IMG/VR virus record: IMGVR_UViG_3300044981_000180
Location: 1-32,096 of that record
Reading direction: 5' to 3' (one strand)
DNA: 32,096 nucleotides
Source of the DNA: a virus
Shown: positions 5,713 to 32,096 of the stretch, piece by piece
Layout of the letters: every line of letters starts with the position of its first letter
How positions within the stretch are numbered: the first letter of the stretch is position 1
Position numbers and translations under genes: made by a program
Notes under the pieces: model-generated
What the model was told of the DNA's origin: nothing
The model's database searches: none
What the model saw: only the letters and a program-made list of their open reading frames with translations

Positions 5713-7236
5713 ATGGCACACTTCAAGCTTGGCCGCAAGGCACTCGTAACCGATTCTCGAACGCTGCGTCTCGCACGCTACTTTTCGCCGACTCTCGCTC
5801 CCCCGCCCGCCAGCGTCGATTGGACGAAGGGGATTACCCAGTGGGGCATGATGTTGAACGACACGCTTGGCGACTGCACAATTGCGGGAGTCGGCCACGC
5901 CATTCAGGTATTCACCGCCAACTCAGGCAGCGAAGTCACACTTCCAGACCAGACCATCCTCGACTACTACGAATGGTGGGACGGCTACGTGGATGGCGAC
6001 CCTTCGACTGACAACGGCGGGATCGAGCTGCAAGTTTTGAATAAATGGAAGAAGAAGAAATTCTGGGGACATCGGCTTAATGCCTACGCCGATCCGGATG
6101 TGTCGAACCTGACGGAACTCCAGCAGGCGATCAATTTATTTGGGGGCGTATATATTGGCCTAAATGTGCCCCAATCCGTGATGAACACGGACGACGATCC
6201 ATCTGTCCTGTGGGATGTGACGGGGGACGATTCGATTGTTGGCGGACACTGCTTATGCCCAGAGACGCGAGTTCTCACCGATGACCTTCAGTGGGTCCCA
6301 ATCGAGTCGATTAAAGTTGGTCAGGTATTGACTGGTTTTCAGGAACATTCGCGTACATCCAGCACTGGCGCGAAACGGAAATTTGAATCTTCTGTAGTCG
6401 AAGCAGTCGCCGAATTCTATTTGCCATGCTACGAATTAGAATTTGCTGACGGGACTGTCGTTCGCGCTTCGCATGACCATAAATGGCTCTGCGTAAATGG
6501 GAGCAAATTCAATTGGATAGAAACGGAAAAAATGCGCCCACAAGGCCCAAGCGGGAATTATAGTACATCAGTCTGGAAAATCTGCGAAGTATGGGACGAG
6601 GATGTGAGTAAGGAAGCTGGGTACCTAGCCGCAGCGTTTGATGGAGAAGGATGGATCGATAGGAATAACAGAGATGGCTTAGGGAACGTTACAAAACTAG
6701 GCTTTGCCCAGCGTCCGAATATTATGTGGGATGAAGTCACAAGCGTATTGCAGGAAAAGGGATTCAAATACCATTCTTGGGACAAGAAAGGCTCTTTTCA
6801 GAAGAGTGGGACGGTAAACCATTTGACAATATCGCGGCGAGCCCAGTTTCTTAAATTTCTTGGCGCTATACGCCCCAAGAGGCTGCTTAGTGGTTTTAGC
6901 CCTTCCAGACTCGGGGCTGTTTCCGGAATCCAAAACGCCCTGATCCGTAAGACTCCTATTGGCAACAAACGAGTGGTTGGACTACAAACGAGCAGCCGAA
7001 CCTTCATTGCCGAAGGTATGGCGTCACATAACTGCGTGTTCGTTCCAAAGTACACGCAGGAAACTTTCACATGTATCTCTTGGGGCCAGTTGTACACTAT
7101 GACCGAGGCGTTCTGGCTCAAGTTTGTCGATGAATCGCACGCGCTTTTGAGTCCTGATTTTTTGGGTGCCAACGGGCTCGATCCGCAGGGATTCAATCTC
7201 AAACAATTGCAGGCCGACCTCGCGGCCATCGTTTAA
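5713..7236 (+). CDS. Papain-like cysteine-peptidase-fold protein interrupted by an intein
   Basis: The precursor is 507 residues; removing the intein (180-440) leaves a 246-residue protein. The extein shows a papain-type layout: Q43 followed by TLGDC with Cys55 as candidate nucleophile, GGH with His179 as candidate general base, and a C-terminal ISWG motif like the papain NSWG, but with Ile where the usual Asn sits. The intein is inserted immediately after His179, so the enzyme should be inactive until splicing restores GGH-CVFV. GAAAGG precedes the ATG. Its position between a holin-like protein and a cell-wall hydrolase suggests peptidoglycan or host-protein cleavage, but the substrate is unknown and the missing Asn leaves activity uncertain. 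Confidence 0.8.
   Translation: MAHFKLGRKALVTDSRTLRLARYFSPTLAPPPASVDWTKGITQWGMMLNDTLGDCTIAGVGHAIQVFTANSGSEVTLPDQTILDYYEWWDGYVDGDPSTDNGGIELQVLNKWKKKKFWGHRLNAYADPDVSNLTELQQAINLFGGVYIGLNVPQSVMNTDDDPSVLWDVTGDDSIVGGHCLCPETRVLTDDLQWVPIESIKVGQVLTGFQEHSRTSSTGAKRKFESSVVEAVAEFYLPCYELEFADGTVVRASHDHKWLCVNGSKFNWIETEKMRPQGPSGNYSTSVWKICEVWDEDVSKEAGYLAAAFDGEGWIDRNNRDGLGNVTKLGFAQRPNIMWDEVTSVLQEKGFKYHSWDKKGSFQKSGTVNHLTISRRAQFLKFLGAIRPKRLLSGFSPSRLGAVSGIQNALIRKTPIGNKRVVGLQTSSRTFIAEGMASHNCVFVPKYTQETFTCISWGQLYTMTEAFWLKFVDESHALLSPDFLGANGLDPQGFNLKQLQADLAAIV
6250..7032 (+). other. Intein with LAGLIDADG-type homing endonuclease remnant
   Basis: Residues 180-440 of the host protein (261 aa). Block A is C180-L-C-P-E-T-R-V, matching the usual Cys1...Thr6-x-Val. 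A block-B-like SxxH (SHDH, 253-256) replaces the common TxxH. The C-terminal block reads TFIAEGMASHN with Asn440, followed by Cys441 as the +1 nucleophile. All residues for standard class-1 splicing are present, although the penultimate His and flanks have not been tested. Between the splicing blocks, LAAAFDGEGW (305-314) matches a LAGLIDADG helix; a second copy is not evident, so the endonuclease may act as a dimer or be decaying. The insert is in frame with no stop codons, consistent with a functional intein. Confidence 0.9.
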
Positions 7237-17354: not shown

Positions 17355-18257
17355 TCAATCAAAGAGAGACGGCTGTTGGTTCCCAGATTCGTCCGTGCGT
17401 TTGTACTTTGCGAGATACGCTTTCGCCTGCTTGGCCCAAACTTCGTTTTCGATGATGCCAAGTTTGAGGTTGCATCTGTTGCACAGAATCCCTCTACGGC
17501 ATAAATCGCATCCTTTCTCCGGTGGACAGCAGTTATGGTTATGATCTATGTGAAATCTCTTCCCACTTATTCCAGATTCCTTGGTTCCGCAGATAGCGCA
17601 TCCGCCGCCCTGTGCGGCAAGTGTCGTGTTGTACCAATTTTCGTCTACGCGGTAGTTTTTGAATCCATGTATTCGCCCATGTATTCGGTTATATCCGGGA
17701 CGCTCAGCTAGCCATTTTTCGTGTTTTTGTCTAGCATATTCCGCGTTTTTTTCACGCCATTTTCTCATAGTTTCTTTGTGTGTCCCGCTAACGCGCGCCT
17801 TGGCTAGAATAGCTTCTTTGTTTTCCTGATAGTATTTTCGTTTGCTCGCTGATCGACATTTCTTGCACTGGGCACGGCGACCACCGCGACCACCCGGATT
17901 TATTTCAAAATCTATGAGGTGTTGTGGAATTTTACACTTCGTGCAGATTTTGAGAATCTCGCTTTCGGTGAGCACACCGATACAAGACGATGATCCTTCC
18001 ACCGCCTTGAACCTCTCAGTTCTCTCTTCTGACCATGAACGGGAATAGGCATTAACGCAATCTTTGCACCACAAAGCCAACCCATCTTTGCTCTTCTTAT
18101 TTTTATGGAAGTCGTCTACTGATTTCCGTTTTTCACAACGAGAGCAGTGCTTCTCGTCGGTGACATTTCCAGAAGCATCTGTGATGCTATCGGCGACGGA
18201 ACATTCCGCTTGAGTTTCAGTCTCTTGGGGGTATAATGCGTGGTATGGGGGTGTCAT
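17355..18257 (-). CDS. Recombination endonuclease VII-like HNH nuclease with two zinc fingers
   Basis: A 300-residue protein on the strand opposite its neighbours. ATG at 18257 is chosen over 18323 because AGGAGG (complement of 18268-18273) precedes it. Two four-cysteine fingers come first (C38/C41/C64/C67 and C105/C108/C131/C134), then a basic helical linker. The catalytic domain matches the T4 endonuclease VII family: AAQGGGCAICG (C220, C223), FHIDHNHN (His/Asp, 236-241), and GILCNRCNLKLG (C259, C262). Known members cut branched DNA or act as free-standing homing nucleases. The opposite orientation, flanking direct repeats and more AT-rich local composition point to a mobile gene. It ends at the left repeat. 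Confidence 0.85.
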   Translation of the reverse strand: MTPPYHALYPQETETQAECSVADSITDASGNVTDEKHCSRCEKRKSVDDFHKNKKSKDGLALWCKDCVNAYSRSWSEERTERFKAVEGSSSCIGVLTESEILKICTKCKIPQHLIDFEINPGGRGGRRAQCKKCRSASKRKYYQENKEAILAKARVSGTHKETMRKWREKNAEYARQKHEKWLAERPGYNRIHGRIHGFKNYRVDENWYNTTLAAQGGGCAICGTKESGISGKRFHIDHNHNCCPPEKGCDLCRRGILCNRCNLKLGIIENEVWAKQAKAYLAKYKRTDESGNQQPSLFD

Positions 18258-18336
18258 GCAGGAATAGCCTCCTGTGTGGTCAGAAATGGCCGGGGCGCGA
18301 ACCCCGACATCCTCAGTATACACTAGCTGAATTTGC

Positions 18337-18352
18337 CCGTCCGGGAGCGCGC
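18337..18352. repeat. 16-bp direct repeat, right copy
   Basis: This is the second exact copy of CCGTCCGGGAGCGCGC. It lies in the leader of the following virion gene, ~37 bases before its ATG. If the 1004 bp between equivalent points is removed, an ordinary short intergenic region with one copy remains. Confidence 0.85.
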
Positions 18353-18389
18353 AAACTTCTGTTGGGTATTTTTATCCAAAGGAGTTTAC

Positions 18390-18974
18390 ATGTCTTTTTG
18401 GGGTAGCCTCTTTGGGGGAAGTTCACCCCAACTAAACACGCTGATTGGTCAGTACGGGCAAATTGGTGGGAACCTAACTGGTCAGGGCCAAAAGTACACG
18501 AATCAATCTGGCGACTTTTTCTCTAGTATATTGTCGGGCGATGCCAGTAAACAGGCTCAAGTTCTGGCTCCAGAGATAAGTTCCGCTAAGACTTCAGCGC
18601 AGCAGCAAAACAAGACTAACGCTGAGTTTGGCACACGCTCGGGCGGAACTACCGCGTCCACAGCGGCAACAAATGATCGCGTCCATAGCGACATCACAAA
18701 CTTGATTGGGAGCCTCACCGGTTCTTCTGCAAGCAATCTAGCCAGTCTAGGAACAACCCTCACTGGTCAAGGTCTTGGCGCATTAGGCCAAGAACAAGGA
18801 GCAGTAGCCCAGCAGATGGCCAACTGGCAAAATTCCATCCTCGGAAAAGGAATCACCGGAGCGGTGCAGGGGGCGGAAGCACTCGGTATGGGAGCGGCAG
18901 GAGGCGCGTTGCCGGGTGGTCCGGGAGCGGCGGCTGGTGCGCAAGGCGCGTTCGCATCATTTCTGAACGGTTAG
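18390..18974 (+). CDS. Small internal virion/ejection-type protein
   Basis: ATG at 18390 follows AAGGAG; the longer frame from 18333 would read through the direct repeat and is rejected. The 194-residue product starts MSFWGSLFGGSSPQLNTLIG and is rich in Ala, Gly, Gln, Ser and Thr, with long weakly amphipathic helices (AKTSAQQQNKTNAEFG, QGLGALGQEQGAVAQQMANW) and an Ala/Gly-rich end. Such composition is common in phage internal virion proteins that leave the capsid with the DNA. It opens a block of four such genes. No enzyme motif is seen. Confidence 0.65.
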   Translation: MSFWGSLFGGSSPQLNTLIGQYGQIGGNLTGQGQKYTNQSGDFFSSILSGDASKQAQVLAPEISSAKTSAQQQNKTNAEFGTRSGGTTASTAATNDRVHSDITNLIGSLTGSSASNLASLGTTLTGQGLGALGQEQGAVAQQMANWQNSILGKGITGAVQGAEALGMGAAGGALPGGPGAAAGAQGAFASFLNG

Positions 18975-18986
18975 TGAGGGGAGAAA

Positions 18987-20519
18987 ATGGGAAGCTACGC
19001 GCAGGCACTTGAGCACAAGCAAGCTCTGTCTGATGAAGAGCACGAGCAGAAAGTCACCGATCTGATCGAGAACCGGAAGGCTATCCAAGCCAAACTCCCC
19101 ACTCTCCTCGACGAAAAAGGAAATCCTACTCCCGAGTACGATCAGGCGATCAGCGACCTGACCGCGAACGCCCGCGATCTGAGGGAGCTTTACCATCCCG
19201 ACAACCATCCGGGTGCGATTGAGCGCGTGGGTCATTTGCTGACCGACGCACTCCACATCACCAATCCGAAAGAGCGAATCGAAAAGGAAGGAGCGAAGCG
19301 AGCCGCTGGCGCTGCTGCTGACGAGCATTCAGCATTGTCGTGGGCCGGGGCTGCGCCGATCTCTCCGGGGCAGGCAACAATCGCGAACGCAAAGACCGAG
19401 AGCGCTGCTCAGTTGCAAATGATTCAAGGTAAGATGGCGAACTTAAAAAAACTCTTTCCGGATGCATCGCCGGAACAGGTCAAGGAGTGGCAGACCGAGC
19501 TTGCCGCCAGCATCACTGGCGTAAAAGACCCGACCGAGAAGTATTTCAAAGACCTCGTGACGACAAAGGACGCGCAGGGAAATGATCACTATTGGCGCGT
19601 GCCGCTCGCTGACGAACCGCCAGAGGAAGTGGATTTCAATGGCGAAAAGATGCAGCCGAAGAACCCGCCGCATCCGAGCCATTCGAAATTCAGTGAGACC
19701 GAGGCGGCGTATCGCCATGACTACGGCATTCCAGATGATCAGCCGTTGTCGATGGCGGACATCATGTTCATCAACCAGCAGACCGCGCTGTCGAGCGGAA
19801 CTCCGTCTTCAACGACGACCAATACGCTGAAACAGGACATCAACGGGTGGTGGGTTCCAATCACCGAGACCAATCGGCGCGTCCCCGGTTTTGGTGTAAT
19901 CCTGTCGCCTCCGCGCGGGCCACTACCACACGAGGACGCAGCGGCGCGATCAGGACAAGGCGAAAAGGCGACTCCTCCAAATTCTTCAGGTCAACCGACG
20001 ACTCTCAGCGGAGTGAAAAAAAAGGCAGAAGCAATAGCTCCAAAATCTGGAGCATCGAGTGGTGGAACGCATGTTGGGAAACCGCTGTTTCCGGGACGCA
20101 CGCCGGAATACACGAAGGCGATGAACGACTACGAAACGGCTGTCAAGGCAGATTCGATGGCGAAAGAGGCGCTCACATCGCATGAAGCTGTTCAGCAACG
20201 CAACTTGGCGATCAACCTGATTCGCACGATGGCTGGTCGCGTCAATATGCAGGAATACCAGCAATACACAACCAAGATGGGTGTCGAGAATACGATTGAA
20301 GGGTTGATCCTCGGCATTCAGAATGGTCAAATGCCTCCGGGAATCGTAAAACAACTCGCTGACACCGCAGCAGCCAATCTGAAGGCTTCAAAGGTTGCCC
20401 TCGACACTTTGAAGAACATGCAGGGACAGCAAGGCTCAGGGGATCAAACGAACCCAGACATCGACGCGATCATCAACTCGCTAAACAAAGCACACACTCC
20501 GGCACCGGCAAATCACTAA
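18987..20519 (+). CDS. Internal virion-like protein, helical
   Basis: A 510-residue protein starting 12 bases after the previous stop, with GGGGAG. Its N-terminal ~110 residues are charged helices (EEHEQKVTDLIENRKAIQAK, NPKERIEKEGAKR). The middle (about 115-300) contains Gln/Lys helices and a beta/Pro region, and the C-terminal part is helical (EALTSHEAVQQRNLAINLIR) with a Gln/Gly-rich end. It overlaps the next gene by TAATG. There is no signal peptide or catalytic signature. Gene order after the nozzle and fibres resembles the T7 14-15-16 segment, which is the main reason for the call. Confidence 0.6.
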   Translation: MGSYAQALEHKQALSDEEHEQKVTDLIENRKAIQAKLPTLLDEKGNPTPEYDQAISDLTANARDLRELYHPDNHPGAIERVGHLLTDALHITNPKERIEKEGAKRAAGAAADEHSALSWAGAAPISPGQATIANAKTESAAQLQMIQGKMANLKKLFPDASPEQVKEWQTELAASITGVKDPTEKYFKDLVTTKDAQGNDHYWRVPLADEPPEEVDFNGEKMQPKNPPHPSHSKFSETEAAYRHDYGIPDDQPLSMADIMFINQQTALSSGTPSSTTTNTLKQDINGWWVPITETNRRVPGFGVILSPPRGPLPHEDAAARSGQGEKATPPNSSGQPTTLSGVKKKAEAIAPKSGASSGGTHVGKPLFPGRTPEYTKAMNDYETAVKADSMAKEALTSHEAVQQRNLAINLIRTMAGRVNMQEYQQYTTKMGVENTIEGLILGIQNGQMPPGIVKQLADTAAANLKASKVALDTLKNMQGQQGSGDQTNPDIDAIINSLNKAHTPAPANH

Positions 20520-23233
20520 TGGCACAAGACCTCACTCCCGATCAGGCAATCGAACAGCTTCGGAAACTTCCCGAGGATCAGCAGAGGCTCGTTCTCGGTA
20601 AGTTGACGCCTGACGCCCTCAAGGCCGTTCGCCAGAAACTCGAAGGTCCTCCCGTCGACTGGACTGCAAATCCAAAAAGTGAAGGCACGTACAAGATGAC
20701 TACGAATGGCACAGACTTTATCGGTGTGCCGTATTCGAAAGTTCTTGATGCGTGGAAGGCCGGATACAAGATCGACGATGAAGATCAAATGCGGTTTGGA
20801 AAAGACAAGAACGAAGAGACGATGAAGCAGCGGAGAGAGCATCCGATGAATGAATCGCACTTCGCTCCTGCTCCCGTCGCTACCGCTCCGCCTGCGCCCG
20901 GTACACCGCTTCCGAAAGCAGACTTCCCAGAATCAGTCAGCGGCGATCAGCATGTCTTACCGGCAGCGGGTTTCTGGGAAACGGCGCGTAACGGTGTCGG
21001 TACATGGAGCCAGCCAGAAGAAAATGCCAAGTGGACCAACTTCGCCAAGCGGCTCGGTGCGGACCTGTTCGGCATAGCAGACTTTCCTGTTGAAGCTACA
21101 CAAGCTTTGATGGATTCGATGTCGGACAATCCCAATGTGAGCGCTCCTGCAATGGATCAGCTTGCGCAGATGTTTACGCCGGAGATGGCGGTACAGCGCG
21201 TTCAGGAGTTCAAACAGGAGTGGAAGAAGAACAAAAACGATGCGATGAATAATGCAGCGGCGGATTCTCTCGCGTTGTTTCTTGCCCACAAACTCGGAAA
21301 GGCTGCGGGCGCGGCCAAGTCGCTCGCGGTTGGCGACGAAGCGGCCAGAACGGCGATCCGCGATCAGCTTGATATGCCGCAGAGGATCGAGAGGACCGTC
21401 AAGAAATTCGGCGATGAGTCCGAAAAGGCGCGGAATGATCTGCGCGCGGCGCGGCAGGCTACCGCTCAGGAAAATGTCGAGACGATCCGAAAGCACAATG
21501 AGGCGAAGCAAGAGATAGAAGAGAAGAATGAGGCCACGCTGCGCGAAGAGAAGAACCGAGTAGATACTCAGCAAAAACTCGATACCGCGTCGAAGGAACT
21601 CGACGAAAAGATCAACGCCGCAGAGAAGAAAGCAGAAGACGAGGACAACGCTGCGTGGGAACCTGTTCATTCCACTCTCGACGCGAGGGAAGGCGACATA
21701 AGTGAACTGAGGCAAACTGTCGAGCGAGAGAAAAAGAACGCCGATCCAGCTACTTCAGCTATTTTTAATAGTATTCTTCGTGAAGATGAACCGGAAACGG
21801 GTGGCGGTACTGGCGGCATACAGAGGGACGTGAATGGAAACCCGATCATCAACGGCCAAGTCCGAAAAGTTGTCTCCCAAGGTTATGAGTTACCGGTTAC
21901 AAACCCGCAGTACGCGAAAGCTTACAAAGCTTTATATGGAGAGGAGCCGCCTCCGTTAGGAGAAGCACAGCCAGCGGTAGGACAGAAACTCATTGTCAAT
22001 GGGAAGGAAGTTCCCACTTCAGACCCGAATTACGCCGCTCTCTACGAAAAGCAATACGGCCATCCTCCTCCGCTCAATGCAGGCGGGGGAACAAAAGGCG
22101 TTTTCTCCAGATTGCAGCGGTGGTATACATTCATCTCCAATCAGCTTTACTCCGGAGGTGGCAGGATGGAAGCGGGGAAATACAACGCCCTGCGCTCCGT
22201 TCTCAACTCCATCGACGGAGCCATGCAAAAAATCGCCAAGGACGCGGGGGATGTTCCCGATCCGTCCGATCCGAATAAGAAGGTACCAGCGACAAGCCTT
22301 CTCGAAAATGCCCGGAAAGTTCACCAGCAGAGGATGGAGGCATTCTCTGACAGGCCGACCGAACCGGGCACTGTGGCTAACTATGTCAGGTCCAAGGTGA
22401 CTCCGAGCTTCACGAAGAATGTGAGGCTGGAGGCATATTTGACGAAACTCGGCGCATACGATCCATCGATTCCAAAATTGGCGAATCACATCGACAATCT
22501 GGGGCAGGGATTGAAGAAACTCCCTGATAAGGGACCTGTGCGCGACAGGCTTCAAACCCCGCCGCCATCGCCGACAGCAATGGGAGGCACCGGCCCTGAG
22601 CACCCGGTCGCCGCAGCCGCGAACATCCCGAGCAACCCACTGCCAAAGGAAGGTGGGCCGGTGCCGTTCGGAGAAAAGAAGGCGGTAGGGGAAAAGCCGG
22701 ACATCGCAAAAATCAATCAAGAGAATATCGATTATCTTAACGATGCTCTGCGCCGCTACGGTAGGGTGGGTCCGTGGGTGGTGCGCTTGCTTTCCGGTGG
22801 GCTCGTCCAGCATCTTCTCCACGGCGAGACGAGTTCATTCAGCGGTGGTCTGATGTTTGGGCAGGCCGTAGTCACCTTGGTGACGAGCATTCTTCGCCGA
22901 GAAAGTGCTTTGGAGTGGCTGGCTCGCCCATCTGAAGAAGATTTGAAAGTGATCGCGAAACTGCCCCCAGAGGACGCGGCGAGATTGAGAGAAGCATTCA
23001 AGGCTCTTGCGCGCGAGGAGATCAATCAGGACCCAAAGAAGGCGTCGATCAAGATCGCCCCAGCAGCAGCGGTGTTCCTCGGCACGCAGAGCATTCAGCA
23101 GCAGTCGTTAGATCAGATCAAGAAGGAAGCCGAGCAGCTACAGTCACAAGAGGCTCCCGGCCCGCAGTCATCGGCTAAGCCGGTTTGGAGCCACGAATTC
23201 GATCCCGTGTCTGGTAACATCGTGGCAGTTTAG
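20519..23233 (+). CDS. Large internal virion-like protein with coiled coil
   Basis: A 904-residue protein. An N-terminal helical segment comes first (DLTPDQAIEQLRKLPEDQQR). Residues ~166-262 form a segment also present in the next protein (AKRLGADLFGIADFP through FLAHKLGKAAG). Residues ~288-395 are a long Lys/Glu coiled coil (EEKNEATLREEKNRVDTQQK). Two tandem motifs of YxxLYGxxPPPL type lie near 454-480 and 491-518. A hydrophobic stretch at ~753-793 (VVRLLSGGLVQHLL, MFGQAVVTLVTSIL) may enter a membrane, as expected for an ejection-pore protein. The layout suits a DNA-ejection protein; no lytic motif is recognised. Confidence 0.65.
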   Translation: MAQDLTPDQAIEQLRKLPEDQQRLVLGKLTPDALKAVRQKLEGPPVDWTANPKSEGTYKMTTNGTDFIGVPYSKVLDAWKAGYKIDDEDQMRFGKDKNEETMKQRREHPMNESHFAPAPVATAPPAPGTPLPKADFPESVSGDQHVLPAAGFWETARNGVGTWSQPEENAKWTNFAKRLGADLFGIADFPVEATQALMDSMSDNPNVSAPAMDQLAQMFTPEMAVQRVQEFKQEWKKNKNDAMNNAAADSLALFLAHKLGKAAGAAKSLAVGDEAARTAIRDQLDMPQRIERTVKKFGDESEKARNDLRAARQATAQENVETIRKHNEAKQEIEEKNEATLREEKNRVDTQQKLDTASKELDEKINAAEKKAEDEDNAAWEPVHSTLDAREGDISELRQTVEREKKNADPATSAIFNSILREDEPETGGGTGGIQRDVNGNPIINGQVRKVVSQGYELPVTNPQYAKAYKALYGEEPPPLGEAQPAVGQKLIVNGKEVPTSDPNYAALYEKQYGHPPPLNAGGGTKGVFSRLQRWYTFISNQLYSGGGRMEAGKYNALRSVLNSIDGAMQKIAKDAGDVPDPSDPNKKVPATSLLENARKVHQQRMEAFSDRPTEPGTVANYVRSKVTPSFTKNVRLEAYLTKLGAYDPSIPKLANHIDNLGQGLKKLPDKGPVRDRLQTPPPSPTAMGGTGPEHPVAAAANIPSNPLPKEGGPVPFGEKKAVGEKPDIAKINQENIDYLNDALRRYGRVGPWVVRLLSGGLVQHLLHGETSSFSGGLMFGQAVVTLVTSILRRESALEWLARPSEEDLKVIAKLPPEDAARLREAFKALAREEINQDPKKASIKIAPAAAVFLGTQSIQQQSLDQIKKEAEQLQSQEAPGPQSSAKPVWSHEFDPVSGNIVAV

Positions 23234-23235
23234 CC

Positions 23236-25398
23236 ATGCCCGATCCTCAGCACAAACTCGTCAAGGTAGACGACTCGATCATCAAGTTTCCGGGTGACAT
23301 GCCCGACGCTGATGTGGCTGCGGTCATCAAGAAATTTACCTCCTCTCCCGACTACAAAAAGCAGACACACACCAAAAACCAGATGCCATCGGGGATCACG
23401 ACGGAGGAGTCTGAGCACAAAAGACTCACCGGCAACGTGCCGACCGTCACGCCGGACTGGAACACGGTGCGTCAGGCCGTCTACAAGGCCACAGAGCCCA
23501 CTCTTCCGAACCCGAATACCAAGCCGGTCGACAACAGCGTAAAAGCGAACGTAGACGCCGCGTGGAACGCAGGAGCAAACGCAGCGAACGTGGGAGGAAA
23601 CATCGCCAAGCGCGCGGGGCGCGTGATCTTTGGCGCGGTGGATATGGCTCCGCAGATGTTCTCGATCCTGTCGAAGCTGGGATCGCCGGACGACAAGGTT
23701 TCACAGCAGGCCGAGACGGACTTGCTCAACTTCCATCCGGGCGCACAGATCGCGGACCGTCTGAAAGAGGCTGTCCACGACTGGCGGAAGTCGAAGAGTC
23801 TTGCGGCAGAGAACGCGTTGGGGGATGTGCTTGGATTCTTCCTGCTCGACAAAGCAGGAAAGGTTCTGCCGGAAGAGAGGATCAAGCAACTCAACGCGGA
23901 AGGCGTGGTGCTTCCTCCGGAGGCAAAGCCAAAAGCTCCAGCATCGATGCCGGGACAGCCACCGACGATTGAGGGAACATTTGAGCGCGCCGCGCCGAAG
24001 CAGGTTGTGCCGGTCGAAGCGGCTGCAAAGCAAACAAGAAACACGCCGCCCAATCTGGAGGATGTGAAGGCGGCGGCGGAGAAACTCAAGCTGCCTGAGA
24101 CGAATCCTCCAGCCGCGCCGCCGTCACTCGCCGACATCAAAGCCAAGGCAGAAGCGGTAAAGGCATCCAAGCCGGAGATCGCGCCGAAGCCTGCACCGCA
24201 GCCAGTGGCGGCTCAACCTGCCACAGCGCCGCCCAAAGTCGAAACTCCGAAGCCAGCGCCAAAAGAGGAACCTAAAACTACCAAGTACAAATACGGCAAC
24301 ACGCAAGCCGACATCCCGCAAGACTCCGACGCAGGTAAAGCTCTCGCGACCGCCCGCACCCAGATCGACAAGAACGACCTGATGCCGTCAACCAACACGA
24401 CAGATGGAAGCGGTCTTGAAGAAAACGCGCACATCACCGTGCGCTATGGAATTGACGGCGAGGACACGGCAGGAATCAAGGCATATTTGGAAAAGCAGGC
24501 ACCGTTTGAGGCCACATTGGGCAAGACGACTGCCTTCCCGCCAAGCGAGCACAGCGATGGTGGAGCGCCCATCGTGGTGAACATCGAATCTCCAGAACTG
24601 CACAGGATGGAGAAGGAGATTGACGCACATGGCAACTTCACCGAGCGGTCGTTCCCCGAATATAAGCCACATGCAACGCTCGCATACGTGAAACCGGAGG
24701 CCGCGCAAAAGTATGTGGGCATGAAGGATACGGAGGGAAAGAAGTTCACCGTCAACTCCGTCTCGATCAGCAACAAGGATGGGTCTATCGAGGAAGTGCC
24801 GCTCAAGGGAACTCCAGATCGAAGAGGCTCGGTAAGAGAAACGCAGGATCGCCGTCAGGATGCTGGGCAGCGCAAGCGCATCGCGGAAATGAATGCCGAC
24901 GAGATGCGAAAAATTCTCTTGACAAGCGATGTGGTCGATCTTCCAAATAGAAGAGCGTTCAACGAAGCTGAGCTTGACCATCCTTCCCCAGCCGTCGCCA
25001 GATCAGACGCCGATGCTCTAAAGGCATTTAACGACAAGTTCGGATATGCCAATGGAGATGCGCTGCTCAGAGCAAAAGCTGATGCACTGAAGCAGGCTGG
25101 GCTCGAAGCCTACCACGAAAAAGGTGATGAGTTTCTTTTCCGTGGGCAGTCTGGTGAAGAGTTGCAAAATAAGCTCGATGCCGCACGTGATATTCTCCGG
25201 AACACCGTATTCGATGTGACCTTGGATGATGGGACAAAGCTACAACTGAAGGGAGTAGATTTCAGCTATGGAACAGGAAAAGACCTCAGCGAAGCCGAAT
25301 CCAACCAGCACGCCCACAAACAGCAGCGAGAGGAAGCTGGAGAACGGAAGCGTGGTGAGCTTGTCGGACTTACTGAAGTTGGAGCCGGGAAGAATTAA
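23236..25398 (+). CDS. Virion-type fusion protein: shared ejection domain, 2H phosphoesterase, GGDEF-like domain
   Basis: A 720-residue protein. Residues 1-35 are a short FPGDMPDADVAAVIKKF-type module. About 118-212 shares its pattern with the preceding protein (NIAKRAGRVIFGAVDMAP through LLDKAGKVL). A long Ala/Pro/Lys linker follows (~215-350). About 355-515 is a 2H phosphoesterase (LigT/2'-5' RNA-ligase fold) with both signatures: HITV at 399-402 and HATL at 479-482 in the usual FPEYKPHATLAYVKP context. About 560-660 matches a GGDEF domain: DLPNRRAF (568-575), SDADALKAFNDKFGYANGD (metal Asp 591/593) and KGDEF (629-633) in place of GGDEF. It ends in a basic/acidic helix. The altered first Gly makes cyclase activity uncertain. 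Confidence 0.8.
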   Translation: MPDPQHKLVKVDDSIIKFPGDMPDADVAAVIKKFTSSPDYKKQTHTKNQMPSGITTEESEHKRLTGNVPTVTPDWNTVRQAVYKATEPTLPNPNTKPVDNSVKANVDAAWNAGANAANVGGNIAKRAGRVIFGAVDMAPQMFSILSKLGSPDDKVSQQAETDLLNFHPGAQIADRLKEAVHDWRKSKSLAAENALGDVLGFFLLDKAGKVLPEERIKQLNAEGVVLPPEAKPKAPASMPGQPPTIEGTFERAAPKQVVPVEAAAKQTRNTPPNLEDVKAAAEKLKLPETNPPAAPPSLADIKAKAEAVKASKPEIAPKPAPQPVAAQPATAPPKVETPKPAPKEEPKTTKYKYGNTQADIPQDSDAGKALATARTQIDKNDLMPSTNTTDGSGLEENAHITVRYGIDGEDTAGIKAYLEKQAPFEATLGKTTAFPPSEHSDGGAPIVVNIESPELHRMEKEIDAHGNFTERSFPEYKPHATLAYVKPEAAQKYVGMKDTEGKKFTVNSVSISNKDGSIEEVPLKGTPDRRGSVRETQDRRQDAGQRKRIAEMNADEMRKILLTSDVVDLPNRRAFNEAELDHPSPAVARSDADALKAFNDKFGYANGDALLRAKADALKQAGLEAYHEKGDEFLFRGQSGEELQNKLDAARDILRNTVFDVTLDDGTKLQLKGVDFSYGTGKDLSEAESNQHAHKQQREEAGERKRGELVGLTEVGAGKN

Positions 25399-25670: not shown

Positions 25671-26590
25671 TGGACAGTCCCACCCTGCTGACCCATTATG
25701 AGCATTGTCGTTTGGATGGCTGGTGGAGCCGCGACTGGGAGCGACGGAAACTCGAACCGAACCAAATGCTTCGGGTTGGTCTCAGAATCGGGTTGACTTC
25801 GACACGACCCGATTTTGGCCAACATGCCGGTGAGCACTGCTATACCCTCGGTGCCGATCCCGGACTCGAATCCAAGGAATACGATTTGCACGCTCAAACG
25901 GTCCACGTCGCTGCTCTGGCGGACGTGATTTCTCATGCCGTGCGCCGCGCCACAGAACCGCCATGGAGCGTAGCGGAGCCGGTTAGGCTAGGAGATGGCC
26001 CATACTGGCATCCAGCGGCCTTCCTAAGCCCTACTAACGATTTTCTGAGACGCGTGGTGCTCGTTACCGCATGGAACGATGACCGGCACTACCACGAGGC
26101 GAGGAGCTTCTTTTCACTCGGCGAAGTGTGCGTCTACGGACTCCCTCTACAAGAGGCCGTGATCGTTTTGGGAGCCAGCAGGGATGGCAAACGCCACGGC
26201 CCACTCTCAAAAGGAATCCTCCACCCCAGAAGCAAGCAACTACGCTTCCGAAAAAAGAACGACGTGAAGGTGCCATTCAAGGACTCTTGGGTCCCGATCT
26301 GGAGAGAGGATCGGGACGAAATCAGCACGCATGATTGGCTTCAGGCGATGCACGATGACGGAATTCTGGCCGACCATTGTTTCAGTGTGACCATTCCAGT
26401 TCCGGAGCGGCAGGCGAGACAGAAGATCGTCGATCTTATCGGAAGAAAACTCGATACTTTGATGGAAATGAGGGAACAACCGGAAGGTTGTCTTTCAGTC
26501 TGCGACTGGCCTACGCCGTGCTCGCATCGAGGGCACTGCCACTCCGGTAACCAGCCAAGCGGAAAGTATGGGTTCGTGCAGATAGGCTAA
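25670..26590 (+). CDS. Cys-rich protein, possible Cas4/RecB-like nuclease relative
   Basis: A 306-residue protein starting GTG within the previous stop (TAGTG). An N-terminal HYEHCRLDGWW and a C-terminal cysteine group (CLSVCDWPTPCSHRGHC, about 278-294) recall the one-plus-three cysteine Fe-S arrangement of Cas4/AddB-type nucleases. The middle has alternating strands and helices (VYGLPLQEAVIVLGASRDGK, HPRSKQLRFRK), but I cannot point to a convincing D...ExK active site, so it may be a degenerate or unrelated metal-binding protein. It ends tail-to-tail with peptide deformylase, overlapping by four bases with no terminator between. Confidence 0.5.
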   Translation: MDSPTLLTHYEHCRLDGWWSRDWERRKLEPNQMLRVGLRIGLTSTRPDFGQHAGEHCYTLGADPGLESKEYDLHAQTVHVAALADVISHAVRRATEPPWSVAEPVRLGDGPYWHPAAFLSPTNDFLRRVVLVTAWNDDRHYHEARSFFSLGEVCVYGLPLQEAVIVLGASRDGKRHGPLSKGILHPRSKQLRFRKKNDVKVPFKDSWVPIWREDRDEISTHDWLQAMHDDGILADHCFSVTIPVPERQARQKIVDLIGRKLDTLMEMREQPEGCLSVCDWPTPCSHRGHCHSGNQPSGKYGFVQIG

Positions 26591-27048
26591 CCGAGAAAAG
26601 CTTTGGAGTTGATCAGCACGCCGTCTAAGTGGTCATTTTCGTGCAGAAAGACTCTCGCCAGCCAGCCGGTCAGTTCGCACTCAAACTTGGTTCCGTCCTC
26701 TTTCTGAGCAATAAAGGAAACCTTTGAGGGACGCACCACGCGCGCGAAGAATCCCGGCAAGCTGAGGCATCCTTCTTCCGCTATGCGAACGTCGCATGTC
26801 TCCGCGATCCCTTCAGGATTGATGAACACCATAGGATCGTTCGGATCATCTTCTCTATGGAAGCCGATGACGAAGACGCGCTTGTTGACGCCGATCTGTG
26901 GAGCAGCGAGGCCAACTCCCTGCGCGGCGTACATCGTTTCGAACATGTCAGCGATCAAAGTTCTCAGATCATCGTCGAATGCGGTGACGGGCTCGCACAC
27001 CGTGCTCAGGATCGAATTGGGATAGGTGACGATTTCTCGGATGCTCAT
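26587..27048 (-). CDS. def: Peptide deformylase
   Basis: A 153-residue protein that removes the formyl group from the N-terminal Met of new proteins, using a bound metal. All three family motifs are present: GVGLAAPQIG (44-53), EEGCLSLPG (91-99, metal ligand Cys94) and HENDH (136-140, metal ligands His136 and His140, catalytic Glu137). ATG at 27048 is used because it overlaps the upstream stop (ATGA) and begins at the usual family start; the longer frame to 27330 adds a low-complexity arginine-rich leader. It is the last gene of a six-gene minus-strand operon. Its length is at the short end for the family. Phage-encoded deformylases are known, notably in cyanophages. Confidence 0.93.
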   Translation of the reverse strand: MSIREIVTYPNSILSTVCEPVTAFDDDLRTLIADMFETMYAAQGVGLAAPQIGVNKRVFVIGFHREDDPNDPMVFINPEGIAETCDVRIAEEGCLSLPGFFARVVRPSKVSFIAQKEDGTKFECELTGWLARVFLHENDHLDGVLINSKAFLG

Positions 27049-27260
27049 GCCAGCGGCTCGTCTCCGGGTCTCATAATTTTCGTTCCATCCAGCACCGATA
27101 AGACGCCGTTTCGCTTCGCCAATTCCTGATTGATCAGAGCCACGACGATCTTCCAAAAGCGCTTTACCGAGTGAGATGCCATCGTTTCGTGACGCAGGTC
27201 GTGAGCGTAGGCTTCTCGCAGGTGGACAAGTTCGTCGTCGGTGACTTCGGAGAGGTTCAT
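27045..27260 (-). CDS. Small helical protein
   Basis: A 71-residue protein, mostly helical and charged (LSEVTDDELVHLREAYAHDL, FWKIVVALINQELAKR). Both ends overlap neighbours as ATGA, at 27045-27048 with peptide deformylase and at 27257-27260 with the upstream gene, so it is firmly part of the operon. There are no cysteines and no membrane segment. It could be a small regulator or structural adaptor; no family is recognised. Confidence 0.65.
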   Translation of the reverse strand: MNLSEVTDDELVHLREAYAHDLRHETMASHSVKRFWKIVVALINQELAKRNGVLSVLDGTKIMRPGDEPLA

Positions 27261-27538
27261 TCCTTGTCTCCGGTTTCATCTTTCGGCGAGGCGTTCGGCT
27301 GCGGTTCGAAGAAATATTTTCCCGCCGCATCGGCGCACGATTTCATCGCCTTATACGCCTGCTTCGCCTTTTCAGTGTTCATCATGTCGAGATGGGCATG
27401 GAGGTCTCGTTCGAATAGTGTGTGGTGCATCGTCATGAGCGCGACTCGGGCGTAATCCTCCGGCGTTGGGGGAGAACCACGATGCGGTCCAGTGTCGTCC
27501 ACGTAGCCTCCGGGAAGTAAGCGGTAGCGGTAGGTCAT
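27257..27538 (-). CDS. Small hypothetical protein
   Basis: A 93-residue protein. A short aromatic N-terminus (MTYRYRLLPGGY) leads into a helical middle (YARVALMTMHHTLFERDLHA, EKAKQAYKAMKSCADAAGKY) and a polar tail (NASPKDETGDKE). It overlaps the next gene by ATGA and begins one base after the upstream stop. It may interact with the other small operon proteins; function unknown. Confidence 0.6.
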   Translation of the reverse strand: MTYRYRLLPGGYVDDTGPHRGSPPTPEDYARVALMTMHHTLFERDLHAHLDMMNTEKAKQAYKAMKSCADAAGKYFFEPQPNASPKDETGDKE

Positions 27539-29633: not shown

Positions 29634-30305
29634 ATGACAAACGACAAAAAGCACTGCTCGAAATGCCGTCAAGAAAAATCACTGGGGAACGACTTTTATC
29701 GATCCGCCAAGAGCCCTGATGGTAGATCGAGCCAATGCAAAATTTGCTCAAATGAGACAACAAAAGCATGGAACGCGAAAAATCGAAGCAAGGTTGCGGA
29801 GAAATGTGCGCGCTATAGAAAAAGACATCCGGAGCGCGTAAAAGCATCCCAAAAAAAATTCAAAGAGGCACACCCAGAAAGATCGGAAGAAATAAAGAGA
29901 CGTTCTTACCAAAAGCACCGTGCGAAAAACAAAGAAAGATTGAGATTGGTCTACCAAGAAAACCGCGAAAAGATAGTGGAGCGTGCTTGCCAATGGCAAC
30001 GAGATAATCCCGATAAGGTGGCTGATCGTCAACGTCGTAGACATGCCCGTCTGTTGATGGCTCCAGTGAATGATCTTACCCACGCGCAGTGGCTCGATAT
30101 ACAACTTGCCTACGATCACCGCTGCGCATATTGCGGTAAAAAGAGAAAAGGGAAACTTACACAGGAGCACATCACGCCTCTCAGTAAAGGCGGGAGTCAC
30201 ACACTGTCTAATGTCGTACCAGCTTGTCAATCGTGCAACTCCAAGAAACACACGGGGCCACCCCTGTGCCCTGTGCAGCCGCTCCTCATTACGGTTTCGA
30301 CGTGA
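29634..30305 (+). CDS. Free-standing HNH endonuclease with zinc-finger N-terminus
   Basis: A 223-residue protein on the plus strand between two minus-strand genes. The N-terminal finger is C8/C11/C35/C38 (HCSKCRQEKS then QCKIC), followed by a long basic helical linker. The HNH domain reads CAYCGKK (C164, C167), LTQEHITPLSKGG (His179) and SNVVPACQSCNSKKH (Asn193, C198, C201). It is a complete McrA-type HNH with zinc knuckles. It ends two bases from the stop of the radical SAM gene, tail-to-tail. Such genes typically home into new sites; strand and AT-rich composition support later insertion. Confidence 0.88.
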   Translation: MTNDKKHCSKCRQEKSLGNDFYRSAKSPDGRSSQCKICSNETTKAWNAKNRSKVAEKCARYRKRHPERVKASQKKFKEAHPERSEEIKRRSYQKHRAKNKERLRLVYQENREKIVERACQWQRDNPDKVADRQRRRHARLLMAPVNDLTHAQWLDIQLAYDHRCAYCGKKRKGKLTQEHITPLSKGGSHTLSNVVPACQSCNSKKHTGPPLCPVQPLLITVST

Positions 30306-30307
30306 GT

Positions 30308-31726
30308 TCACTTGCTGCTCCTCAAGATGTTTGCTGGTAATCGCTGGCCCATAGAGTGCTCAAAGTTTATCGCAGCGGCGGAAGTTGGATATGGGATACC
30401 GAGTTTCGATCTTACATCCGCCTCCACATCATCCCGTAAGGAGACGAGTTTCTGGCGATCAATATAGTCTGTCCATACAAAGGCATGATATTCGCCGGGT
30501 ATGCCTTTATAGTAGGCAAGTTCTTTCGTGTAATCTACATTCTCGGAGTACAGTTTGTCGCCGTGAGTCTCGTAGACGTACACAGGCTCTTCAAGACAAA
30601 CCGATTCATCAAAATAAGGCGTGCCGGGGAACAGGGTGATGATAGTACAGTCAAAATCGTCTGGCTTCTCGTCGAGTAGCCAATCGCGAGTCGCTATGAT
30701 CGTCTCCTCGCTCTCCGCTGGGTGCCCGAAACTCATCAATGCTTTTACTTTCAGTCCGTGCTTATGAGCGGTTCGGAGCATTCGCGTGTTATCTTCGCGC
30801 GTAGCGACCTTGGCAATGTTTCTAAGTATACGGGGATGTGCAGATTCAAAGCCGCAAAGCAGCCAACGGAACCCAGCCGCGTACATTGCTTCTGCTTGCT
30901 CTTCATTGAATAACTCCGCCTTGACAAAACCACGTAGTCTCCAGTCGATGCCGGTATCTTTGATTTTCTTGCAGAGCGCGACGAGACCACGATTGACATT
31001 AAGCTCATCGTCATAATTCATTAGCCCAGTAATACCGTATGTCTTATTGAGGTATAGCATTTCGGCAATCACGTTATCGGCTGTGCGCGTTCTAATCTGA
31101 CGCAGCATAGGAGAGTTTCTCCCACCACAGAACGAACAATGGTATGGGCAACCCAACTGGTTTATTATTGATGTACTTACACGGCCATCTATCTGGTAGT
31201 GATAACTCCAGAAATCGATTAGATGCCTAGCTGGCCACGGACTCTCAGTGAAGTCTTTGGATGTTTGCCAGAGAGGAGATTTGGGATCGTCGGCGTCCAC
31301 TAATCCTTTTGGTACGTGGAGAGCTTCGAAGATGGCTTTTTCTCCGTCGCCAGCGACGACGACATCGAAATTGTTTAGGAGTTCAGCCAAAGCCTTCTTA
31401 GCTCGTTCGTTTCCGCGCTTCGCCGCCGCATGGACGAGAGTTGCATGAGGACCGCCAAGAATTGTCTTGCTCGCCGATGACAACACTCTTCGCACACGAA
31501 TCGCTGCCGGTATCTGCGGGGTCGTGGATGTAAAGCAGAAAACGGCATGTTGCTCGGAGTAATCCTTGGCTGCTTCCTCATAATTTTTGACTCCAGTCAA
31601 ATCCAAGTGGTCAACGACGTACCCAGCGCCCTCCAGAACCGCACCGACTTTCAGAATCCCGAGCGAGCAAAAAATTCTCTCGTCTATGAGAAAGTTTGAT
31701 GGCGGAGTTACGAGGCAGACGCGCAT
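30308..31726 (-). CDS. Cobalamin-binding-type radical SAM enzyme
   Basis: A 472-residue protein; ATG at 31726 has a strong GGAGGA. An N-terminal B12-binding-like Rossmann region (about 1-140: SLGILKVGAVLEGAG, ILGGPHAT at 89-96, VVAGDGEKA) lacks the usual DxHxxG cobalamin ligand, as in some BchE/QueE-type relatives. The radical SAM domain carries CPYHCSFC (C193, C197, C200), then MNYDDE and GFESAHPRILRNIAK, and a GHPAESEETI motif typical of this family. Such enzymes methylate, rearrange or couple carbon centres. It overlaps an upstream methyltransferase gene by 19 bases, so they probably act together. The substrate is unknown. Confidence 0.85.
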   Translation of the reverse strand: MRVCLVTPPSNFLIDERIFCSLGILKVGAVLEGAGYVVDHLDLTGVKNYEEAAKDYSEQHAVFCFTSTTPQIPAAIRVRRVLSSASKTILGGPHATLVHAAAKRGNERAKKALAELLNNFDVVVAGDGEKAIFEALHVPKGLVDADDPKSPLWQTSKDFTESPWPARHLIDFWSYHYQIDGRVSTSIINQLGCPYHCSFCGGRNSPMLRQIRTRTADNVIAEMLYLNKTYGITGLMNYDDELNVNRGLVALCKKIKDTGIDWRLRGFVKAELFNEEQAEAMYAAGFRWLLCGFESAHPRILRNIAKVATREDNTRMLRTAHKHGLKVKALMSFGHPAESEETIIATRDWLLDEKPDDFDCTIITLFPGTPYFDESVCLEEPVYVYETHGDKLYSENVDYTKELAYYKGIPGEYHAFVWTDYIDRQKLVSLRDDVEADVRSKLGIPYPTSAAAINFEHSMGQRLPANILRSSK

Positions 31727-32096
31727 GGCTTCCTCCAAACAGTCATTCGCTCTGCTTCTGAAAGCAGTTTCCAATTCGCTGACTTCACGAATTGATCAAG
31801 ACATGCGGCGACTTCGTGGTAGTCACTGTCGTGGACCGCGAGCACTCCGCTGGGCTTCAGGAATGGAATCCAATTTGCAAAATCGCGGCCTACCTGCGGA
31901 GCGTAATGCCACCCATCGATGTAGAGAAAATCGATAGGAAGATTCCACTTTGACGCCACCAAGTCGGTAGGCATTTTGTGATAGGTGAACGGGACTTCGA
32001 GGAAATGATTCACGATGAGGTTCCAAAACGCATACGTCGCATGTTTCGGTTCCCAGAGGAGAGCGTCAACGAGGTGAATATCGAGGTCGAGGTCTT
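31708..32096 (-). CDS. SAM-dependent methyltransferase, C-terminal part (runs off the right edge)
   Basis: The frame is open to the window edge, so the N-terminus is missing (start not visible). The visible part has the class I pattern: DFLYIDGWHYAPQVGRDFAN (acidic end of strand 4) and FLKPSGVLAVHDSDYH (strand 5 and metal/substrate loop), as in Methyltransf_24-type O- or N-methyltransferases. Upstream residues (LDLDIHLVDALLW) read as another strand. It overlaps the radical SAM gene by 19 bases, suggesting coupled modification steps, perhaps on a glycan, since a GT2-like gene lies downstream. The exact substrate is unknown. Confidence 0.7.
   Translation of the reverse strand, partial: DLDLDIHLVDALLWEPKHATYAFWNLIVNHFLEVPFTYHKMPTDLVASKWNLPIDFLYIDGWHYAPQVGRDFANWIPFLKPSGVLAVHDSDYHEVAACLDQFVKSANWKLLSEAERMTVWRKPCASAS

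What the first reader, a model, noticed from the sequence alone, without database searches (positions are those of the whole stretch)
24298..25290. Virion-type protein joining a 2H phosphoesterase to a GGDEF-like domain
The sequence shows a full 2H pair (HITV 399-402, HATL 479-482) and, ~90 residues later, a recognisable GGDEF layout with DLPNRRAF, metal-binding Asp591/Asp593 and KGDEF. From established knowledge, 2H enzymes include phage Acb1, which destroys CBASS cyclic-nucleotide signals, and GGDEF domains make c-di-GMP. One protein carrying both in an ejection-gene block could enter the host with the DNA and alter cyclic-nucleotide signalling at infection. This is inference; the K in KGDEF may mean binding without synthesis.
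Basis: partly seen in the sequence, partly recalled or inferred. Interest (0 to 1): 0.78.

Follow-up and report, generated by a model that had tools for sequence, protein, structure and literature searches.

The report
Phage protein joining two nucleotide-signal enzymes
A gene at the end of the virion-protein block of a soil phage encodes one protein with a 2H phosphoesterase domain (the fold of the anti-CBASS enzyme Acb1) followed by a diguanylate-cyclase-like GGDEF domain; it is a new domain combination of a known kind of phage 'polyvalent' protein that is thought, but not shown here, to be injected with the DNA to tamper with nucleotide signals in the host.

Summary
The 720-aa protein at 23236-25398 carries a 2H phosphoesterase domain (Pfam E 2.8e-9; AlphaFold pLDDT 94; matches LigT-type 2H enzymes and Acb1) and, adjoining it, a GGDEF domain (model matches diguanylate cyclases at Z 17, 1.6 A; metal and guanine residues and the GDEF core invariant in 19 phage sequences). 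Only the first Gly of GGDEF is replaced (Lys).

It is the last gene of a packed block of ejection-like genes, in the same place in three related 134-143-kb phage contigs. There its C-terminal half is swapped: against a 91%-identical phage the DNA identity ends exactly at the 2H/GGDEF border. Relatives are giant polyvalent proteins with ART, N6-methylase, SNF2 and RelA/SpoT-like domains. 2H+GGDEF pairing changed at least five times on both domain trees, so it recurs.

Iyer et al. 2017 (PMC5512222) already described polyvalent proteins as injected effectors and listed 2H, GGDEF and RelA/SpoT domains with these functions; I did not find the 2H+GGDEF combination in the main text passages read. Packaging, activity and substrates are untested. 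The 2H domain keeps Acb1's catalytic tetrad but not clearly its adenine-reading residue or lid.

The parts
23236..25398 (+). 720-aa two-enzyme (2H + GGDEF) phage polyvalent-type protein, the subject of the finding
23236..23385 (+). N-terminal segment (res 1-50, KLVKVDDSIIKFPGDMPDADVAAVIKKF) kept in the same-locus proteins of three related phages although the rest is swapped
23593..23871 (+). module (res 120-212) shared at 31-33% identity with the neighbouring 904-aa gene and also found in the G003 protein
24262..24810 (+). 2H phosphoesterase domain (res 343-525)
   Evidence: Pfam; model; fold matches; profile vs PDB
24430..24441 (+). first HxT motif, HITV 399-402
   Evidence: H in 51/51, T in 50/51 sequences
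24670..24681 (+). second HxT motif, HATL 479-482, within FPEYKPHATLAY
   Evidence: H in 51/51, T in 49/51 sequences
24810..24815 (+). recombination border: 91.5% DNA identity to phage G001 ends at 24812 and resumes at 25689
24904..25332 (+). GGDEF domain fold (res 557-699)
   Evidence: model; fold matches; profile vs PDB
25006..25014 (+). D591-x-D593, first metal-binding motif
   Evidence: invariant in 19 sequences
25120..25134 (+). KGDEF 629-633 (signature motif; GDEF invariant, first position variable)
25318..25329 (+). K695 / R698, likely counterparts of PleD K442/R446 phosphate-binding residues (register not certain)
   Evidence: invariant; helix matched
20519..23233 (+). 904-aa gene directly upstream, ejection-protein-like by position; ends 2 bases before the start of the 720-aa gene
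18987..20519 (+). 510-aa gene, part of the same packed block, syntenic in related phages
18333..18974 (+). 213-aa gene (SFWGSLFGGS...), start of the block, syntenic in related phages

Best explanation
A phage-type polyvalent protein, made late, packaged in the particle and delivered with the DNA, that acts on nucleotide signals in the first minutes of infection. Its 2H domain cuts a cyclic or 2'-5'-linked (oligo)nucleotide alarm signal by the metal-independent two-histidine mechanism of Acb1/LigT enzymes; its GGDEF domain binds GTP and makes a cyclic dinucleotide, most likely c-di-GMP, pushing host signalling the phage's way. Shown here (by computation): both folds, conservation of both active sites, position behind virion genes, cassette exchange at the domain border, repeated pairing of the two domains with each other and with RelA/SpoT-like synthetases. 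Inferred: packaging, injection, catalytic activity, substrates and the benefit to the phage.
For: 2H: PF13563 E 2.8e-9; model pLDDT 94.4; Z 15.5 TT0787, 14.3 LigT, 12.6 Acb1; family profile finds Acb1 entries 9q2g E 3e-7 and 7t26 E 5e-6 ahead of a LigT-like protein; H44/T46/H113/T115 of T4 Acb1 map to H399/T401/H479/T481, and the stacking F107 and W74 positions are Phe in 51/51; dN/dS 0.07 against G001. GGDEF: Z 17.0 over 138 residues; D591, D593, N599, GDEF, K695, R698 invariant in 19/19 sequences. Context: same locus in G001/G002/G003 after syntenic late genes; G001 has terminase and major head protein genes; a polyvalent protein of cultured phage Tunturi_5 with the same 2H family (SprT-like, 2H, ART, GNAT, ART) lies between head-tail connector and minor tail genes. 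Pairing: 2H+GGDEF in six architectures, at least five changes on each domain tree, one-clade hypothesis rejected (p-AU 6e-77 and 0.0018). Published precedent: PMC5512222.
Against: No activity, ligand or virion proteomics data exist. The first Gly of GGDEF is Lys, and in one cyclase tested by systematic mutation most substitutions there abolished activity. Acb1's E141 and W147 (adenine contact, lid) and Y12 are not found by alignment. No packaging signal was identified. 2H+GGDEF association by simple counts is weak (4 of 16 GGDEF contigs against 5 of 69 helicase-scan contigs).
Confidence: 0.5

Rival explanations
1. The 2H domain works on RNA, not on signals: a ribonuclease or 2',3'-cyclic-end processing enzyme (Usb1/ThpR-like), for instance to counter tRNA-cutting defences; the GGDEF domain is a separate function.
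For: Best structural matches by Z are ThpR/LigT-type enzymes (15.5-14.1) and Usb1 is the top Foldseek hit; Pfam's best match is the RNA ligase-like PF13563; Iyer et al. offered the RNase reading as one of two.
Against: Among solved sequences the family profile is closest to Acb1; the domain is repeatedly joined to signal-synthetase folds (GGDEF, RelA/SpoT-like).
Confidence: 0.25
2. The GGDEF domain is not a synthase: with Lys in the first motif position it only binds GTP or c-di-GMP and serves as a sensor or clamp for the 2H domain.
For: Lys at the first position in most of the family; most substitutions there killed VCA0965; no RxxD inhibition site in this sequence.
Against: All catalytic and phosphate-binding positions are invariant, which a pure sensor would not need; the first position varies (K, S, G, Q, H) within the family, and His is tolerated in VCA0965.
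Confidence: 0.3
3. The protein is not delivered: it is expressed late in the infected cell, or is only a structural part of the particle with decayed enzyme domains.
For: No proteomics; the N-terminal half has no recognised packaging function; phage GGDEF relatives in Yuavirus are small solo proteins outside the virion genes.
Against: Strong conservation of both active sites; synteny at the end of the ejection-like block in four phages; polyvalent relative next to virion genes.
Confidence: 0.12

Closest known systems
Phage-type polyvalent proteins (Iyer et al. 2017, PMC5512222)
   Same: Several unrelated enzyme domains in one polypeptide next to virion genes; domains exchanged as cassettes; 2H, GGDEF and RelA/SpoT domains already listed there with counter-signalling or signal-making roles
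   Different: The 2H+GGDEF (and RelA/SpoT+2H+GGDEF) combination was not found in the main-text passages read; the window protein is small and lacks the usual MPTase/ART hubs
Acb1, anti-CBASS 2H nuclease (T4 57B; PMC9117128)
   Same: 2H fold, HxT/HxT tetrad, aromatic positions 74 and 107, profile similarity
   Different: Solo 152-aa enzyme; its E141, W147 and Y12 not found here; this one is a domain of a larger protein
GGDEF diguanylate cyclases (PleD, WspR, DgcR)
   Same: Fold, DxD, Asn, G(D/E)EF core, Lys/Arg helix
   Different: First Gly of GGDEF is Lys, a conserved His stands where Arg is usual, no I-site, no sensor domain
Yuavirus / Vojvodinavirus 'diguanylate-cyclase GGDEF' proteins
   Same: Phage-encoded GGDEF, about 30-36% identical
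   Different: Small solo proteins (156 aa in PaSz-4) with an RVSGDEF motif beside an antirestriction gene, not in the virion block

Membership tests
2H phosphoesterase superfamily | two HxT/S motifs | tested here: met
   HITV 399-402 and HATL 479-482; conserved in 51 sequences
2H phosphoesterase superfamily | 2H fold | tested here: met
   model pLDDT 94.4; Z 15.5-12.6 to ThpR, LigT, Usb1, Acb1
Acb1 (anti-CBASS) | HxT/HxT tetrad (H44,T46,H113,T115) | tested here: met
Acb1 (anti-CBASS) | aromatic stacking residues Y12, W74, F107, W147 | tested here: inconclusive
   74 and 107 are Phe in 51/51; 12 and 147 not aromatic, C-terminal alignment unsure
Acb1 (anti-CBASS) | E141 adenine contact and C-terminal lid | tested here: inconclusive
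   E141 aligns with N/D/S; the lid region could not be aligned with confidence
Acb1 (anti-CBASS) | PF23474 above its gathering score | tested here: not met
   24.9 bits against 27; 26.6 in G001
Acb1 (anti-CBASS) | cleaves CBASS cyclic oligonucleotides | not testable with these tools
   no bench work
GGDEF diguanylate cyclase | GGDEF fold | tested here: met
   Z 17.0, 1.6 A, 138 residues to DgcR
GGDEF diguanylate cyclase | metal/guanine residues (PleD D327, N335, D344, E370) and K442/R446 | tested here: met
   counterparts invariant or nearly so in 19 sequences; PleD numbering from own knowledge; K/R register not certain
GGDEF diguanylate cyclase | intact GG(D/E)EF signature | tested here: not met
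   KGDEF; active xGDEF cyclases are known with A, S, H, M at the first place
GGDEF diguanylate cyclase | synthesis of c-di-GMP | not testable with these tools
   no bench work
phage-type polyvalent protein | two or more unrelated enzyme domains in one polypeptide | tested here: met
   2H + GGDEF
phage-type polyvalent protein | encoded with virion genes of a portal-terminase phage | tested here: met
   terminase, major head protein, weak portal match in near-identical phage G001; same gene order
phage-type polyvalent protein | exchanges domains with other polyvalent proteins | tested here: met
   same locus holds ART-PolyVal + GGDEF in G002; relatives with N6-methylase, SNF2, RelA/SpoT-like
phage-type polyvalent protein | packaged and injected | not testable with these tools
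   needs virion proteomics

The most novel reading that the evidence does not exclude
Soil phages carry in their particles a second-messenger 'reset kit': one injected polypeptide that erases the host's alarm nucleotides (2H) and at once imposes phage-chosen signals (c-di-GMP by GGDEF, and in relatives (p)ppGpp by a RelA/SpoT-like domain). That would be a virion-delivered cyclic-dinucleotide synthase coupled to a signal-degrading enzyme, assembled repeatedly in evolution.
Probability: 0.25. Interest if true: 0.8.

Novelty: new variant of a known kind. Interest (0 to 1): 0.52.

Why it matters
If the domains are active and delivered, phages would be countering nucleotide-based immunity before any phage gene is expressed, and would be supplying their own signal. 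The repeated joining of a signal-degrading fold with signal-making folds (GGDEF, RelA/SpoT-like) points to joint action and gives defined, testable enzymes; a cultured acidobacterial phage (Tunturi_5) carries the same 2H family in a polyvalent protein.

Tried and rejected
Single ancestral 2H-GGDEF fusion: rejected by both domain trees. Simple count of association (GGDEF scan 4/16 with 2H against 5/69 in the helicase scan): few cases, relatedness not corrected, so the argument rests on recurrence. PHROGs for the neighbouring genes: almost nothing recognised in the window, so virion context was taken from the 91%-identical phage G001. Proteomics of Tunturi phages: none in the paper's main text. 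Paper search for the BCSR5 phosphodiesterase structures (9q2g/9q2y): nothing held. I-site RxxD before KGDEF: absent by inspection. A peptidase-like (MPTase) reading of the swapped G001 C-terminus was considered from local motifs; Pfam gave no support.

Full report
What is there. The gene at 23236-25398 (+ strand, 720 aa) starts two bases after the stop of a 904-aa gene and is the last of a packed run 18333-25398. The window is a 32-kb virus fragment. Pfam finds a 2H domain (PF13563, E 2.8e-9, above the curated cut-off) and, below cut-off, Acb1 (E 1.8e-5) and GGDEF (E 3.9e-4). PHROGs gives phrog_755 (RNA ligase, over the 2H part) and phrog_5594 (unknown, over the GGDEF part).

The 2H domain. 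An alignment of 51 phage sequences gives a model with mean pLDDT 94.4. VIA-align places it with 2H enzymes: TT0787 Z 15.5 (3.1 A, 155 residues), LigT 14.3, human Usb1 14.0, Acb1 7t26 12.6 (2.8 A, 135 residues), phage BCSR5 PDE 11.8. As a sequence profile the family's best solved relatives are Acb1 entries (9q2g E 3e-7; 7t26 E 5e-6), then a LigT-like protein. Mapping T4 Acb1 (fetched): H44, T46, H113, T115 fall on H399, T401, H479, T481 (51, 50, 51, 49 of 51 sequences); the F107 and W74 positions are Phe in all 51; Y12, E141 and W147 are not kept, with the C-terminal part aligned poorly (roles of these residues from PMC9117128). So it works like a 2H enzyme of the Acb1/LigT kind; that it is an Acb1 is not established.

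The GGDEF domain. Nineteen phage sequences give a model with core pLDDT above 90. It matches diguanylate cyclases: DgcR Z 17.0 (1.6 A, 138 residues), SiaD 16.5, WspR 16.4, PleD 15.7. D591, D593, N599, G603, H627, GDEF 630-633, K695 and R698 are invariant; K629 is not: K, S, G, Q and H occur there across the family and in bacterial genome relatives. Relatives exceed Pfam's cut-off (L016 36.4 bits). In VCA0965 the first motif residue tolerated A, G, H and M; most others killed activity (PMC3974145). Activity of KGDEF is therefore open.

Locus and lineage. The 1366-aa protein of the window has relatives in three contigs of 138.5, 134.3 and 142.8 kb (G001, G002, G003), with similar gene order up to and including this locus. 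G001 has terminase (phrog_5989 E 1.2e-13), major head protein (phrog_9953 E 4.5e-7) and a weak portal match. Window and G001 share 91.5% DNA identity over 23149-24812; it stops at the end of the 2H domain and returns at 25689, in the next gene. In G001 the 2H domain is followed by a different C-terminus; in G002 the same locus encodes ART-PolyVal and a GGDEF domain 72% identical to this one; in G003 an 1875-aa protein with a 68%-identical GGDEF. The N-terminal 30-50 residues persist in all four. dN/dS between window and G001 is 0.16 for the N-terminal part and 0.07 for the 2H domain; for the GGDEF domain synonymous sites are saturated in the comparisons with G002 and G003 while dN is about 0.2.

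Pairing in other phages. Scans of viral contigs with the two domain alignments and a profile search of all frames found 2H and GGDEF in one polypeptide in six architectures: window; L016/L023 (RelA/SpoT-like, 2H, GGDEF); L018; L054 (RelA/SpoT-like, 2H, GGDEF, methylase); L009 (GGDEF, 2H, helicase); L049 (RelA/SpoT-like, GGDEF, 2H, methylase, SNF2). In L016, L023 and L018 the 2H domain is followed at once by GGDEF through a similar linker, as in the window. On each domain tree the pairing needs at least five changes, and holding the paired proteins together as one clade is rejected (p-AU 6e-77 on 2H, 0.0018 on GGDEF). A helicase-domain scan as background gave 2H in 5 and GGDEF in 1 of 69 giant proteins; simple counts of 2H-GGDEF association are small, whereas RelA/SpoT-like domains are clearly frequent among 2H proteins (about 18 distinct proteins, against 2 of 69).

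Host. Best bacterial-genome matches of the GGDEF family include acidobacterial MAGs, and the best cultured-phage match of the 2H domain is Tunturi_5 of Tunturiibacter (37%), whose gp321 has SprT-like, 2H, ART-PolyVal, GNAT and ART-PolyVal domains and lies between head-tail connector and minor tail genes. An acidobacterial host is likely but not shown.

Comparison with the known. Iyer et al. 2017 defined polyvalent proteins, predicted injection, and proposed that 2H domains degrade defence nucleotides or act as RNases and that GGDEF and RelA/SpoT domains make signals (PMC5512222). This finding fits that frame. What I add: the 2H+GGDEF combination, its repeated assembly, the cassette exchange at the exact domain border, and the conservation analysis of both active sites. 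I could not read that paper's supplement, so the combination may be listed there.

Shown and inferred. Shown by computation: folds, motif conservation, synteny, exchange, recurrence. Inferred: packaging, injection, catalysis, substrates, effect on host defence.

Noticed in passing
window 5713-7236 (residues 180-440, about 6250-7032): A 261-aa intein (starts Cys, ends His-Asn before Cys, weak LAGLIDADG match) sits right after a GGH motif in a protein with a GDC...GGH layout (papain-like peptidase by eye); the 257-aa G001 homologue lacks it precisely.
   Followed up: partly
L016, L023, L049, L054: RelA/SpoT-like, 2H and GGDEF domains together in one giant phage protein.
   Followed up: partly
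window 26587-27330 (-): Phage-encoded peptide deformylase (PF01327 E 1.7e-49).
   Followed up: no
window 30308-31774 (-): Radical SAM protein with a B12-binding-like domain; related DNA also in G002 and G003.
   Followed up: no
window 17355-18323 (-) and 29634-30305 (+): The second is an HNH endonuclease; the first, inside the late block on the opposite strand, looks HNH-like by eye, and other opposite-strand genes occupy that place in G001 and G003.
   Followed up: no
L188:1953-2411: In T4 the acb1 gene (57B) lies beside ipI, annotated as an internal virion protein gene.
   Followed up: no
L022: A phage with separate 2H (379-aa frame) and solo GGDEF (201-aa frame) genes within 8 kb.
   Followed up: no
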